Of a DNA stretch of 64,000 nt, positions 8,652 through 45,071 are shown piece after piece (positions within the stretch are counted from its first letter, which is position 1; every line of letters begins with the position of its first letter). The notes below the pieces were generated by a model. That model was not told the origin of the DNA. It did no database searches and saw nothing but the letters and a program-made list of their open reading frames with translations. Location: positions 156,142-220,141 of the forward strand of contig JACPIF010000011.1 of assembly GCA_016188215.1 (NCBI GenBank), written 5' to 3'. Both the position numbers and the translations under genes were made by a program. This stretch comes from Candidatus Woesearchaeota archaeon (GTDB lineage: Archaea; Nanobdellota; Nanobdellia; Woesearchaeales; JACPIF01).

Positions 8652-9404
8652 ATGCAGGGCTATATCGCAGGTGTTTTGCTGAACTCAGAGACAGTATGGC
8701 ACAGGAACACTGCTATCGGCATTTTCTTTGCCGGCTGCGATTTCAAGTGCCCTGCCTGCACCAAGCCGAAGATAACTGACTTTAAGGAAGAGTTCAGGAT
8801 CGACATAAAGGATGTGAAGGAAGCCATCCGGGTGAATGCGCATATCTCAAACGCGGTCCTATTTACAGGAGGCGAGCCCTGCCTGCAGCGTGAGGTCATC
8901 CTGGACATAGCAAAATACGCCAAATCACTGTCATTGAAGACCGGCATAGAAACTAATGGCTCAAAGCCCCTTGTCTTAAGGAAACTTGTGAAAGACGGCC
9001 TTCTCAATTTCCTGAGCATAGATTTCAGGGCCCCAATGGAGCCTGGCATCTTTGAGAAGCTCACCAAGTCAAAAACCTTCTTCATTGACACAGAAGAGAT
9101 TATCATGAACTTCAAGCGCTCATTGATAGTTGCAAAGCGCTACAACCCGCAACTTCAACTCCAGTTCAGGACAACCATTGTTCCCGGCCTGCTCTACAGG
9201 AAAGAGGATATCCTGGAAATTGCCAAGATTATCCGCCACTTCAGCTGCACCTGGAAGCTGGAGCAGTTCAACCCCTCCCTGCCTACATTAAACCCAAACA
9301 TGCAGAACCTGTTTCCGGTATCGCAGCAGTTCATGGAAAACCTCAAGGAAGCCTGCCTGGAGCAGTATCCAAATCTTAGGATTGAGATTGTTAATTACAA
9401 TTAG
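8652..9404 (+). CDS. nrdG: anaerobic ribonucleotide reductase activating protein-like radical SAM enzyme
   Basis: 'FFAGCDFKCPACTKP' CxxxCxxC; 'LFTGGEPCLQ'. Confidence 0.75.
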   Translation: MQGYIAGVLLNSETVWHRNTAIGIFFAGCDFKCPACTKPKITDFKEEFRIDIKDVKEAIRVNAHISNAVLFTGGEPCLQREVILDIAKYAKSLSLKTGIETNGSKPLVLRKLVKDGLLNFLSIDFRAPMEPGIFEKLTKSKTFFIDTEEIIMNFKRSLIVAKRYNPQLQLQFRTTIVPGLLYRKEDILEIAKIIRHFSCTWKLEQFNPSLPTLNPNMQNLFPVSQQFMENLKEACLEQYPNLRIEIVNYN

Positions 9405-17607: not shown

Positions 17608-17657
17608 ATCCTTTAAAATCAGCTAAGTTTATAAAAATATTGCGGCTCTCTGCTGGT

Positions 17658-18749
17658 ATGATAAAAATTGACGGAAGCCATGGCGAGTCTGGAGGCCAAA
17701 TACTAAGGACTGCTTTGGCATTTTCCATGCTTACTGGCGGGGCATTTACCATAGAAAATATCCGCAAAGGCCGCGAAACTCCTGGATTAAAGGCGCAGCA
17801 TCTGGCAGGTGTTCAGTCTGCTGCCAGACTGTGCAACGCTCATGTGGAAGGCGCAGAGCTTGGCTCCACGCACCTTTCCTTTGCCCCAAAGCCATTGAAA
17901 GGCTCATCTCTCTCAATAGACATAGGCACTGCCGGCTCCGCTACGCTGCTATTGCAATCGCTCCTGCCCGCGCTCATCTTTTACAAAAAGTGCTCAATCA
18001 CGGTTACTGGCGGCACTGATGTTGCCCATGCACCCCCATACGATTACTTCGCTTATGTCTTCCTTCCACTCCTGTCCAGGTTTGCCTATATCAAATCTCA
18101 GCTCATTAAGCGCGGCTATTATCCGAAAGGCAGCGGCACGCTCAAGCTTGATATTCTGCCAAAATATCAGTTGTCACAGTTTCCGGGTTTCAATGAGCTG
18201 CGCACGCATGTGCAGAAAGAAGCTCCTGGCTTCAAGCTGCTCAACCAATCCCAACTTGTGCATATCAAGGGCGTCTCGCACGCGTCTGCAGATTTGCAGC
18301 AGGCGCAAGTTGCCGAGCGCCAGAAGCAGGCAGCTGTGCATGCTTTGTCAAAATACAGCTGCCCTGTCAGCATAAGGGTTGAATACGCCCGGACTGCTTC
18401 AACAGGCTCAGGCATAACGCTCTGGGCGCTTTTCTCAGAGAAAAAGGACGAGCTTGATCCACTGCGCATACCCCGATTGGCCGGCGACGCGCTCGGCGAG
18501 CGTGGCATCCCTGCAGAAAAGGTCGGCAATCTTGCGGCACAGCGGCTGAGTGCAGAGATTGAAAGCAAGGCTGCTGTTGACAGGTATCTGGCAGATCAAT
18601 TGCTGCCTTTCATGGCATTTGTTCCCTCGAAGATTAAGACATCAGAAATAACAAAGCATTGCCTGTCAAATATATATGTCATAGAGTCCTTTCTAGGAAA
18701 AACATTTGAGATAGAGGAGAAGGAGAGAGTTATCAGGACGGTATTCTAA
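17658..18749 (+). CDS. rtcA: RNA 3'-terminal phosphate cyclase
   Basis: 'IDGSHGESGGQILRTALAFSMLTG', 'HLAGVQSAARLC', 'TGGTDVAHAPP'. Confidence 0.9.
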   Translation: MIKIDGSHGESGGQILRTALAFSMLTGGAFTIENIRKGRETPGLKAQHLAGVQSAARLCNAHVEGAELGSTHLSFAPKPLKGSSLSIDIGTAGSATLLLQSLLPALIFYKKCSITVTGGTDVAHAPPYDYFAYVFLPLLSRFAYIKSQLIKRGYYPKGSGTLKLDILPKYQLSQFPGFNELRTHVQKEAPGFKLLNQSQLVHIKGVSHASADLQQAQVAERQKQAAVHALSKYSCPVSIRVEYARTASTGSGITLWALFSEKKDELDPLRIPRLAGDALGERGIPAEKVGNLAAQRLSAEIESKAAVDRYLADQLLPFMAFVPSKIKTSEITKHCLSNIYVIESFLGKTFEIEEKERVIRTVF

Positions 18750-21791: not shown

Positions 21792-22841
21792 TTAGCAATT
21801 TCTTAATATAAATAATAATTCTTTTTCAGGAACTGCACTCCTAATTCCCCAACCATTAAAATGCGTCCTGTTCGCTGCATATCCCTTGCTTTTTATCTTC
21901 TTAATTATATCATCCTGCTTAGGAATCCTGCTGACCTTATGCTTTTTGCATAATGCATGGATATCATGGAAGCCAACCGCATCAATCCTCGCTTCCTCCC
22001 TTATTGCGCCCAATAGTTCTGCCGCTTCCTTCATGTCTGCCTTTACAGCCTCTTTCCATGCTGCATCCGCAACCTTCCTGTCCCATAGCCTACCGAGCCA
22101 TAACGGCCCTGCTCCTTTGTACATCCCATGCTGCCGCAGCACAGCATCAACATTCTTCTTTCCTTTTACGCACTCAAAGAATACTCTATAATAATGCTCA
22201 GTAGCATAGCTAAGCGCTGGAATAAGCGCCTTCTCGTACTGCCCAGCAACCAACTGCACCTTCCTGATCAGGATCCTCAGCCCAATCTCGTGCATCTCCT
22301 CATTCCGCAACGGATTAGCCCAATACTTCCGCCTGCAAGCCTCAGGAAAAGTTCCTGCCAATGCAGAGGTGTCAGTTGCAGTCACCGCTAGTATCCCTAC
22401 CTTGGCAATCCTCTTAACAGCAGCATCCAGGAAATTGTTCGGATTTCCAAATGGATCGATATCAATGTAGTCAAAGCTGCCAGCGTGCTCCAACAGGAAC
22501 AGGTTTGCATCCTTATTATAGACCTCAATCTTCTGCTTGAGCTTCTTTAATCCTTTCTCATTCAGCTTGATATTTCCGATGATTGACTCCACCGCCTTCC
22601 CACTGCTGTCATTGATGGCAATTGATTCCACATTTCTTGTTTCAAGCAGGAACCGTAGGGCACGCACCCCTGAAGCAGCCAGCGGATCAGCTATTTTCAT
22701 CTTCTTTCCTTTCACTTTAAGCATTAGCACAGAAATATCCCTATTGAGCTTCATCACAGGGTTATAGAACACATCCATCTTCGCAGTTATCTTTCCTATT
22801 GAAGCTTTTATCTTGGCTTTGCCTTCTGTGATTATATTCAT
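21792..22841 (-). CDS. trm1: tRNA (guanine26-N2)-dimethyltransferase Trm1
   Basis: 'ADPLAASGVRALRFLLET', 'YIDIDPFGNPNNFLDAAVKRI', 'LAVTATDTSALAG'. Confidence 0.9.
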   Translation of the reverse strand: MNIITEGKAKIKASIGKITAKMDVFYNPVMKLNRDISVLMLKVKGKKMKIADPLAASGVRALRFLLETRNVESIAINDSSGKAVESIIGNIKLNEKGLKKLKQKIEVYNKDANLFLLEHAGSFDYIDIDPFGNPNNFLDAAVKRIAKVGILAVTATDTSALAGTFPEACRRKYWANPLRNEEMHEIGLRILIRKVQLVAGQYEKALIPALSYATEHYYRVFFECVKGKKNVDAVLRQHGMYKGAGPLWLGRLWDRKVADAAWKEAVKADMKEAAELLGAIREEARIDAVGFHDIHALCKKHKVSRIPKQDDIIKKIKSKGYAANRTHFNGWGIRSAVPEKELLFILRNC

Positions 22842-32357: not shown

Positions 32358-32366
32358 GGTAAAAAG

Positions 32367-32466
32367 TAGCCCCGGGCAGATTCGAACTGCCGTCAGATGG
32401 TCCAAAGCCACCTATGCTTGACCGCTACAAACCGCAGAATCGCAATGCGATTTCTTCTACGGGGCT
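32367..32466 (-). tRNA. tRNA-Gln(TTG) with 27-nt D-arm intron (32430-32456)
   Basis: Exon 1 AGCCCCGTAG + exon 2 TGTAGCGGTCAAGCATAGGTGGCTTTGGACCATCTGACGGCAGTTCGAATCTGCCCGGGGCTA gives a 73-nt cloverleaf; 7/7 acceptor pairs. Confidence 0.85.
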
Positions 32467-32590
32467 ATAAAGCATAAATCTGCCGGAACTGGGATTTAAG
32501 TGCTGGATGTGCATATTTAAACTTAATGATTACCATCTAATCCTGAGACCCTTAACTTAAGGTATTTCCTTTAATACGCACACCACATTT

Positions 32591-43454: not shown

Positions 43455-45071
43455 CTATTCATCCCCGAACTCATCAAAATCTGCAATATTGATCTGCCCT
43501 TTCCTCTTGCCCTCAGGTATTCTCTCAACCTCAGTCCCGACCTGCTTCCGCACGCTCTCTGCAACTTTCCTGCCAAGCAGCGCATTCAGCGTAGCAATGT
43601 CCGCCTTCCGTATGTCTCCCAAATCCCTGATCTTATTATTATACATGACGCGCGCCCTGACTCTTCCAATCCCCTCAAGCCTTATGAGCGGCAGCAGCTC
43701 TTCTTTAACGCCATGCTGCATCCTGAGCCGCAATTTGGCAGTTTCCCTTACCATCTCCTTGAACTGAAGTATCTTTGCCAGCTCTTCAGTGCAGAACAGC
43801 AGCCAGTCTGCAATCTGCAATTTGCTCCTTGTCTCTCCTGGCCTGACTGTAAACTCCTCTAGCAGGAATTCCTCATCTTTCTCGTCAATCCAGCTCTCAA
43901 AGAACAGGGCAGTCTTGAACGATTTGATATAGTCATCATAATCAGGGTCATAGAGGCTCGGCTCCTTCTCCAGTAAAAAGTGCTCATTCCTCATGAGCTC
44001 CTGCTCAATCTTCTCGCGCTCTTTGACCCGCACGGTAAGCAGCGGATACATCTCAAGGGTGTTGGACAGCAGCTGCAGCAGCCCAATGCTCCGCAGTTTC
44101 CTTCCTGAAGCGTTCCGCAGCCCTTCAATGATATGATAGGCACTCACAGGGTCAAGGTACAGCTCAGAAACCCTCTTTCCGAGGAATGTTGCAGCATAGC
44201 TTTCCTGGGTATTGCTGATCTCATTTGCAGAGACAAACTCATCCTTCAACCCCTTCAGCTTCTGCATGCCAGCCTGCTCTTCCCCTCCTGACACCTTGAT
44301 GAATTCATACTCTTCCAGCAGTTCCAGCATCTTAGTGATTATAATCTCAAGGTGCTCAAGGTCTTTGAACTGGTGGCTCCAGAATGTCTTGCTGAAGAAA
44401 TCCATGATCTGCTGCTTGTCCTTCACTAGTTTAGTGGCAATCAACGACAATAGGTATGTCCGCAGCACAGGCTCAACCGCCAATTTAGAATAGATGTGCT
44501 CCGGCTTCCCGTTGACATACTTTTCAAAGATGAAATCCTTCTCTGCCTCAGAGCCTGCAATGGTGATCGCCTGCCCTTCAGTGTCATAGCTTGGCCTCCC
44601 TGCCCTGCCTGCCATTTGGTGGTAATCCATGACAGGGATCCAGTTCAGTCCGCGGCTGCCATACCGCTTCAGGTCTTTTATGATTGAACGGTATGCCGGA
44701 AGATCTAAGCCATAAGCCAAAGTAGGAGTCGAGCATACAATCCTGATGACTCCGTTCTTAAAATGCTCTTCAATTATCTCCCTCTGCTTGCTGTGCAATC
44801 CTGCATGGTGGAACGCTATTCCTTTTTTCAGGCAGAATGCCAGTTTTTCACACTGCTTTGTAGGCTTGGCAAGCGCCCGCAGCGCCCGCAGCGCAAGCTC
44901 TTCAAGCTCCTCCGCAGGCTTCATTTTTTTGGCAATATCTTCTGCAGCCTTCTCAGCAGACCTTTTAGTGCCGGCAAAGACCAGCGCCTGCTTGTTACGC
45001 TTCAGGGTATCAAGAACTATATTGAGCACTGCGCTGTCTGTCTTCTGCTCAATGTCAATGGATTTTGCCAC
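43455..45071 (-). CDS. Hel308-type helicase, RecA2-to-C-terminus half only
   Basis: 'GIAFHHAGLHSKQREIIEEHFKNG', 'CSTPTLAYGLDLPA', 'YHQMAGRAGRPSYD', C-terminal HhH 'LEGIGRVRARVMY'; no Walker A/B. Confidence 0.8.
   Translation of the reverse strand: MAKSIDIEQKTDSAVLNIVLDTLKRNKQALVFAGTKRSAEKAAEDIAKKMKPAEELEELALRALRALAKPTKQCEKLAFCLKKGIAFHHAGLHSKQREIIEEHFKNGVIRIVCSTPTLAYGLDLPAYRSIIKDLKRYGSRGLNWIPVMDYHQMAGRAGRPSYDTEGQAITIAGSEAEKDFIFEKYVNGKPEHIYSKLAVEPVLRTYLLSLIATKLVKDKQQIMDFFSKTFWSHQFKDLEHLEIIITKMLELLEEYEFIKVSGGEEQAGMQKLKGLKDEFVSANEISNTQESYAATFLGKRVSELYLDPVSAYHIIEGLRNASGRKLRSIGLLQLLSNTLEMYPLLTVRVKEREKIEQELMRNEHFLLEKEPSLYDPDYDDYIKSFKTALFFESWIDEKDEEFLLEEFTVRPGETRSKLQIADWLLFCTEELAKILQFKEMVRETAKLRLRMQHGVKEELLPLIRLEGIGRVRARVMYNNKIRDLGDIRKADIATLNALLGRKVAESVRKQVGTEVERIPEGKRKGQINIADFDEFGDE

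What the first reader, a model, noticed from the sequence alone, without database searches (positions are those of the whole stretch)
32367..32466. tRNA-Gln(TTG) interrupted in the D arm by a 27-nt noncanonical intron
Seen directly on the minus strand: AGCCCCGTAG[AAGAAATCGCATTGCGATTCTGCGGTT]TGTAGCGGTCAAGCAT.... CCGT pairs with GCGG as a 4-bp central helix between 3-nt bulges AG|A and TT|T, and the inner hairpin is AATCGC-ATT-GCGATT. Cutting after the second base of each bulge gives a normal 73-nt tRNA-Gln split between positions 10 and 11. Noncanonical archaeal tRNA introns are best known from Thermoproteales, so one beside DPANN/euryarchaeal-like genes is unexpected. The outer helix is weak, so this would be a relaxed BHB.
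Basis: partly seen in the sequence, partly recalled or inferred. Interest (0 to 1): 0.85.

Follow-up and report, generated by a model that had tools for sequence, protein, structure and literature searches.

The report
Noncanonical intron in an archaeal tRNA-Gln
A small uncultured archaeon's only CAA-reading glutamine tRNA gene is interrupted near its 5' end by a 27-base intron that the cell must cut out, one of many odd introns in this lineage, including, apparently, two in the gene for the enzyme that rejoins the cut pieces.

Summary
Window 32367-32466 (-) encodes a tRNA-Gln(TTG) split after position 10 by a 27-nt insert with a bulge-helix-bulge (BHB) fold. It is the only TTG gene found in the 91%-complete assembly. 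The second tRNA-Gln (CTG) carries an intron at the same site plus two more.

A model of this intron finds it in tRNA-Gln of 15 of 246 genomes of the same order (10 families). The 4-bp central helix is complete in 16 of 16 copies read. It covaries between exon and intron: CCGT/GCGG becomes CCAT/ATGG. The outer helix is absent, so the motif is relaxed.

Related genomes show widely varying tRNA intron loads, and noncanonical introns are already reported in DPANN relatives (ARMAN-1/2, N. equitans).

What departs from the textbook is the enzyme. G000 has one single-domain alpha-type EndA, with no detectable beta subunit and no CSL/ASL-like insertion, an architecture described as narrow. In passing, the single rtcB (RNA ligase) gene appears to contain two 31-nt BHB introns whose removal restores its catalytic motifs. 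No RNA data were available. The lineage name is unresolved.

The parts
32367..32466 (-). pre-tRNA-Gln(TTG) gene, 100 nt
   Evidence: read; covariance model R1 end to end
32457..32466 (-). 5' exon, tRNA positions 1-10 (AGCCCCGTAG)
32430..32456 (-). 27-nt noncanonical intron at 10/11
32367..32429 (-). 3' exon, tRNA positions 11-73, anticodon TTG
32459..32462 (-). central BHB helix, exon strand CCGT (acceptor positions 5-7 and U8)
   Evidence: paired in 16/16 copies
32432..32435 (-). central BHB helix, intron strand GCGG
32456..32458 (-). 5' bulge AG|A (predicted cut between 32457 and 32456)
   Evidence: BHB 2+1 cutting rule
32429..32431 (-). 3' bulge TT|T (predicted cut between 32430 and 32429)
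32436..32455 (-). inner hairpin AGAA-A-TCGC-ATT-GCGA-TTCT
32512..32521 (-). TTTAAATATG, TATA-box-like element about 46 nt upstream of the tRNA; the same motif lies upstream of the G000 tRNA-Gln(CTG) and of the G007 tRNA-Gln
   Evidence: 4 in window, 0.34 expected
32361..32365 (-). T-run just 3' of the tRNA, terminator-like
   Evidence: read; no hairpin terminator found

Best explanation
This is a genuine noncanonical (position 10/11) BHB tRNA intron in the only CAA-decoding tRNA-Gln gene found in a DPANN-like archaeon. Proposed mechanism: as the 5' half of the transcript emerges, acceptor positions 5-8 (CCGU) pair with the intron (GCGG), while the intron's own hairpin closes the other end, forming a BHB with no outer helix. 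EndA cuts after the second base of each bulge, RtcB joins G10 to U11, and positions 5-7 are then free to pair with 66-68 and close the acceptor stem. Shown: the anatomy, the covariation, the lineage distribution, the single alpha-type EndA, and an RtcB gene. Inferred: transcription, order of folding, cleavage, ligation, and that the alpha-type EndA does this without a beta subunit.
For: Complete cloverleaf after removal, and no other TTG gene found. Homologous 10/11 introns in tRNA-Gln(CTG) of the same genome and in 14 other genomes from nine further families; all 16 copies read have anticodon TTG or CTG. Central helix 4/4 in 16/16; cells with double changes 21 versus 6.5 shuffled (0/500 reach it); slid controls 34-56% paired versus 99%. 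Exon-intron covariation CCGT/GCGG, CCAT/ATGG, CCGT/ACGG; in G146 and G081 position 66 changes too, so A7 pairs in both precursor and product. 5'-half folding: mean probability of the central helix 0.84, versus 0.008 with shuffled introns. EndA has one intact frame with both Pfam domains. RtcB is present.
Against: No RNA evidence of any kind. In naive folding of the whole precursor, the BHB-constrained structure is about 5-10 kcal/mol worse than the best fold in the seven cases computed, because the acceptor stem competes for positions 5-7; P(central) was 0-0.36. Three of the 16 5' halves form the central helix with probability below 0.4 (G000-CUG, G092, G226). Alignment A5 was fitted to the model, so its counts lean towards it, although A4 (MAFFT, 4 rows) shows the same. 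Alpha-only EndA is described as narrow (PMC6379350).
Confidence: 0.92

Rival explanations
1. The intron is real, but it is removed by a heteromeric (alpha-beta)2 EndA whose diverged beta subunit escaped detection.
For: The literature assigns relaxed BHB cutting to (alpha-beta)2 and epsilon2 enzymes (PMC6379350). The closest solved relative of the G000 EndA is the alpha chain of the N. equitans heterotetramer. The search profile recovers the N. equitans beta (6e-18) and P. aerophilum beta (0.02), but the A. pernix beta chain is not in its hit list.
Against: No second EndA-like sequence at E up to 10 in G000 or in nine relatives, including the single-contig, 100%-complete G010 (G038's two hits cover consecutive parts of one protein on two contigs). 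37 of 40 genomes with an EndA match show exactly one.
Confidence: 0.25
2. A dead or inert insertion: this copy is a pseudogene.
For: Conventional tRNA finders fail to recognise the gene.
Against: The exons are intact, no other TTG gene was found, a TATA-like box is present, and the site and its pairing are conserved across 10 families.
Confidence: 0.03
3. Assembly or sequencing artefact.
For: The host is a draft, 13-contig assembly.
Against: Homologous, structured, sequence-diverged inserts at the same site in 14 other genomes.
Confidence: 0.01
4. The insert stays in the mature tRNA as an extended D-arm hairpin.
For: The whole-precursor best fold leaves most of the acceptor stem closed with the insert as a side hairpin.
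Against: Selection keeps pairing between the insert and acceptor exon positions 5-8, which would be pointless if the insert were retained. Insert length varies from 18 to 39 nt.
Confidence: 0.03

Closest known systems
Noncanonical BHB introns of Thermoproteales / Crenarchaeota tRNAs
   Same: Short introns outside 37/38, several per gene, relaxed BHB, cut by the 2+1 bulge rule
   Different: Host is not crenarchaeal (it has FtsZ), with a single alpha-type EndA and no CSL-like insertion. The position list in PMC4090602 (20/21, 22/23, 25/26 ... 59/60, 3/4, 'etc.') does not name 10/11, but it is not exhaustive.
ARMAN-1/2 (Micrarchaeum) tRNA introns with epsilon2 EndA
   Same: DPANN-type host with multiple and noncanonical introns
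   Different: The EndA here is a 200-aa single unit, not the 390-aa epsilon protomer with ASL. Three MAGs named Micrarchaeota have 345-414 aa frames carrying two adjacent EndA matches.
Nanoarchaeum equitans tRNA splicing
   Same: Closest solved EndA relative is its alpha chain (3iey_A, 4.6e-37), which shows no long loop at the CSL/ASL site in the profile alignment
   Different: N. equitans pairs it with a beta chain (NEQ261); none was detected here. No split tRNA at this locus.
cbf5 pre-mRNA BHB intron of Crenarchaeota (for the rtcB introns)
   Different: Different gene, two introns, non-crenarchaeal host with homomeric-type EndA. The host gene is the splicing ligase itself.

Membership tests
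Archaeal BHB tRNA intron (noncanonical position) | Insertion whose removal gives a complete tRNA | tested here: met
Archaeal BHB tRNA intron (noncanonical position) | 4-bp central helix between two 3-nt bulges at the exon-intron borders | tested here: met
   16/16 copies, with exon-intron covariation
Archaeal BHB tRNA intron (noncanonical position) | Strict hBHBh' with both flanking helices | tested here: not met
   outer helix 0-1 bp in all 16: relaxed motif only
Archaeal BHB tRNA intron (noncanonical position) | Cleavage by EndA and ligation by RtcB | not testable with these tools
   EndA gene intact; RtcB gene present but itself interrupted
(alpha-beta)2 EndA system with CSL | Separate beta subunit | tested here: inconclusive
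   none at E<=10; the profile sees two of three known beta types checked
(alpha-beta)2 EndA system with CSL | Crenarchaea-specific loop insertion in alpha | tested here: not met
   the solved EndA 2cv8 has a 10-residue insertion after YYGK; the 20-sequence profile has none
epsilon2 (ARMAN) EndA system | Three-unit protomer of about 390 aa with ASL | tested here: not met
   one catalytic domain, frame 204 aa; all frames in the relatives at most 258 aa
Split or permuted tRNA | Halves at separate loci or in reversed order | tested here: not met
   both exons adjacent and in order
BHB intron in mRNA (rtcB, outside the window) | Frame and conserved motifs restored by cutting 2+1 in each bulge | tested here: met
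   no RNA evidence

The most novel reading that the evidence does not exclude
This archaeal lineage splices relaxed, noncanonical BHB introns with a homomeric alpha-only EndA lacking any specificity loop. In this species the RNA ligase gene rtcB is itself interrupted by two BHB introns inside its catalytic motifs, so the ligase is needed to mature its own mRNA, an autocatalytic splicing loop.
Probability: 0.5. Interest if true: 0.85.

Novelty: new variant of a known kind. Interest (0 to 1): 0.62.

Why it matters
The accepted rule is that relaxed, noncanonical tRNA introns go with (alpha-beta)2 or epsilon2 EndA carrying a specificity loop. Here is a whole order with, as a rule, one loop-less alpha-type EndA per genome and widely varying intron loads, so the rule becomes directly testable with one recombinant protein and one short RNA. 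The 16-copy intron family also shows acceptor-stem bases covarying with both their intron partner and their mature partner. If the rtcB introns are real, the ligation enzyme depends on itself. In practice, standard tRNA finders miss genes like these, so tRNA sets of such genomes look incomplete.

Tried and rejected
Assembly artefact, pseudogene, retained insert, and split or permuted tRNA: see rivals and membership. Those MAGs have a different EndA type, so I withdrew an initial Micrarchaeota reading. Whole-precursor folding to support the BHB: it went the other way and is reported as evidence against. BHB scan of the window for coding-gene introns: 39 hits on both strands versus 22 on one shuffled strand, none convincing. 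Structure prediction of EndA was not run, because its rule admits only the window's own proteins or loci from other tools. rtcB in a relative: found in G011, uninterrupted at both sites.

Full report
1. The observation. On the minus strand, 32466-32367 reads AGCCCCGTAG AAGAAATCGCATTGCGATTCTGCGGTT TGTAGCGGTCAAGCATAGGTGGCTTTGGACCATCTGACGGCAGTTCGAATCTGCCCGGGGCTA. Without the middle 27 nt it is a 73-nt tRNA-Gln with perfect acceptor and T stems and anticodon TTG. ARAGORN gives a wrong gene that starts inside the insert. Rfam misses the gene at its gathering score and finds only the core 10-63 below threshold. A covariance model of the two spliced tRNA-Gln of this genome recovers exactly 32367-32466.

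2. Copies in the genome. The assembly (G000; 1.11 Mb, 13 contigs, 91% complete) has only one other tRNA-Gln, a CTG gene at C1:143350-143475 plus its upstream 5' exon. By reading, it has three inserts: one at the same 10/11 site, one in the anticodon loop, and one in the T loop at 59/60. The T-loop insert has a full hBHBh': T stem outside, TTCG/CGAA in the centre, 8 bp inside. Only 17 tRNA-like genes score in the genome by Rfam at E<=0.001, and several more emerge only at weak scores because they are interrupted. In 40 genomes of the same order the count runs from 9 to 43. This fits very different intron loads, although completeness also differs.

3. A conserved intron. Two relatives showed the same insertion, so four copies were aligned. 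All eight tested pairs hold in all four, with three columns changed on both sides. A model of these four was run over 246 genomes of the order. Seventeen hits of 44-65 nt score 45-65 bits, then there is a gap to about 25 bits for 26-nt intronless 5' ends; E-values from this model are rough. The 17 hits lie in 15 genomes of 10 families. Sixteen were read, and all are tRNA-Gln, TTG or CTG. Introns are 18-39 nt. The central helix is complete in 16/16, each bulge is 3 nt, and the outer helix is 0-1 bp. G146 and G081 carry CCAT/ATGG and G226 CCGT/ACGG in place of CCGT/GCGG. In G146 and G081 the mature partner at position 66 is also T. Twelve of the sixteen played no part in building the model. Counts: 99.2% of cells paired (slid controls 34-56%), 21 cells with double changes versus 6.5 shuffled, 0/500. 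A5 is model-fitted, so these counts lean towards the structure; A4 is not.

4. Folding. In the 5' half alone the central helix forms with mean probability 0.84, versus 0.008 with shuffled introns. In the whole precursor the acceptor stem competes, and the BHB state is 5-10 kcal/mol less stable in the seven cases computed. I therefore propose that the BHB forms during transcription, before the 3' acceptor strand exists. That order is inference.

5. The machinery. The genome has one EndA, 200 aa, with the N-terminal and catalytic Pfam domains. Of 40 relatives, 39 have an EndA match and one (G034) has none; no frame exceeds 258 aa. Best solved matches are N. equitans alpha, then M. jannaschii alpha4. 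Thirty aligned sequences show no insertion where the solved EndA 2cv8 has a 10-residue extra loop and ARMAN-2 a shorter one. No second EndA-like gene was found at E<=10 in ten genomes. As a control, the same profile finds the N. equitans beta and weakly the P. aerophilum beta, but the A. pernix beta is not among its hits, so a diverged beta is not excluded. Published accounts call alpha4 narrow and give relaxed cutting to (alpha-beta)2 and epsilon2 enzymes with CSL or ASL (PMC6379350, PMC12397907). N. equitans is also listed as broad. The enzyme question is therefore open, not settled.

6. rtcB (outside the window). The only RtcB match lies at G000:C11:8649-10018, in three pieces with shifted frames. 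Two 31-nt segments, 8722-8752 and 8830-8860, each sit in a BHB: GGGG/CCCT and TTCG/CGAA central helices, inner helices of 10 and 9 bp, cuts AT|T and TG|A. Removing exactly these gives one 488-aa frame with GYGFPIGG and FDINCGMR restored. It scores 584 bits against PF01139 and aligns end to end with P. horikoshii RtcB. About 0.02 such motifs are expected by chance in a gene this size. Short-segment folding gives the two central helices only modest probability (0.09-0.14 and 0.26-0.43). The homologue in relative G011 is uninterrupted. As of 2020, one paper could name only cbf5 as an earlier archaeal BHB mRNA intron, besides its own HVO_1309 5'UTR case (PMC7714728). My searches of the open library found no report for rtcB, which is not proof of novelty.

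7. Comparison. Noncanonical and multiple introns are known from Thermoproteales, N. equitans and ARMAN-1/2 (PMC4033280, PMC4090602), and 92-95% of tRNA genes contain introns in some Asgard genomes (PMC11291895). The tRNA-Gln intron is therefore a member of a known kind. What varies is the enzyme context and the depth of exon-intron covariation. The lineage is not named here: the aIF5B scan was biased, and the named Micrarchaeota MAGs have a different EndA.

Noticed in passing
L235:1386-1416 and 1494-1524 (G000:C11:8722-8752 and 8830-8860): The single rtcB gene is interrupted by two 31-nt BHB-type introns exactly inside the GYGFPIGG and FDINCGMR motifs. Removal restores a full-length RtcB, so the ligase may need itself to be made. 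The rtcB of relative G011 (L246:18623-19999) is uninterrupted.
   Followed up: partly
L026 1400-1580 region (G000:C1:about 143350-143494, -): tRNA-Gln(CTG) with three apparent introns: 10/11, anticodon loop, and T loop 59/60, the last with a complete hBHBh' motif.
   Followed up: partly
L020 (G000:C4:57293-57391, -) and L168 (G009 tRNA-Gln): D-loop introns of nearly identical sequence (AATTCCCCTAAAAAGGAAGGC / AATTCCCCTAAAAGGAAGGC) in different tRNAs of different families; possible intron transposition, as proposed for Thermoproteales, or shared constraint.
   Followed up: no
L008, L020, L021, L022, L023 (G000): By reading, further G000 tRNA genes carry inserts in the D loop or T loop. Many expected isoacceptors were not found at all and may be more heavily interrupted.
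   Followed up: partly
G246 (record of L029): A MAG named Candidatus Micrarchaeota (KMA_Bin06) has three separate epsilon-like EndA genes (384-393 aa frames).
   Followed up: no
L001 and L009 (G000:C13 and C9): Two different tRNA-Tyr(GTA) genes, one intronless and one with a long insert at the anticodon loop.
   Followed up: no
window 43455-45071 (-): A helicase-like ORF appears to begin mid-protein, with a lipoprotein-like ORF directly upstream; a possible truncated or remodelled helicase gene (from reading the translation only).
   Followed up: no
window 17640-18749 (+) and 21792-22841 (-): An RNA 3'-terminal phosphate cyclase (RtcA family) and Trm1 lie within 15 kb of the tRNA-Gln.
   Followed up: partly
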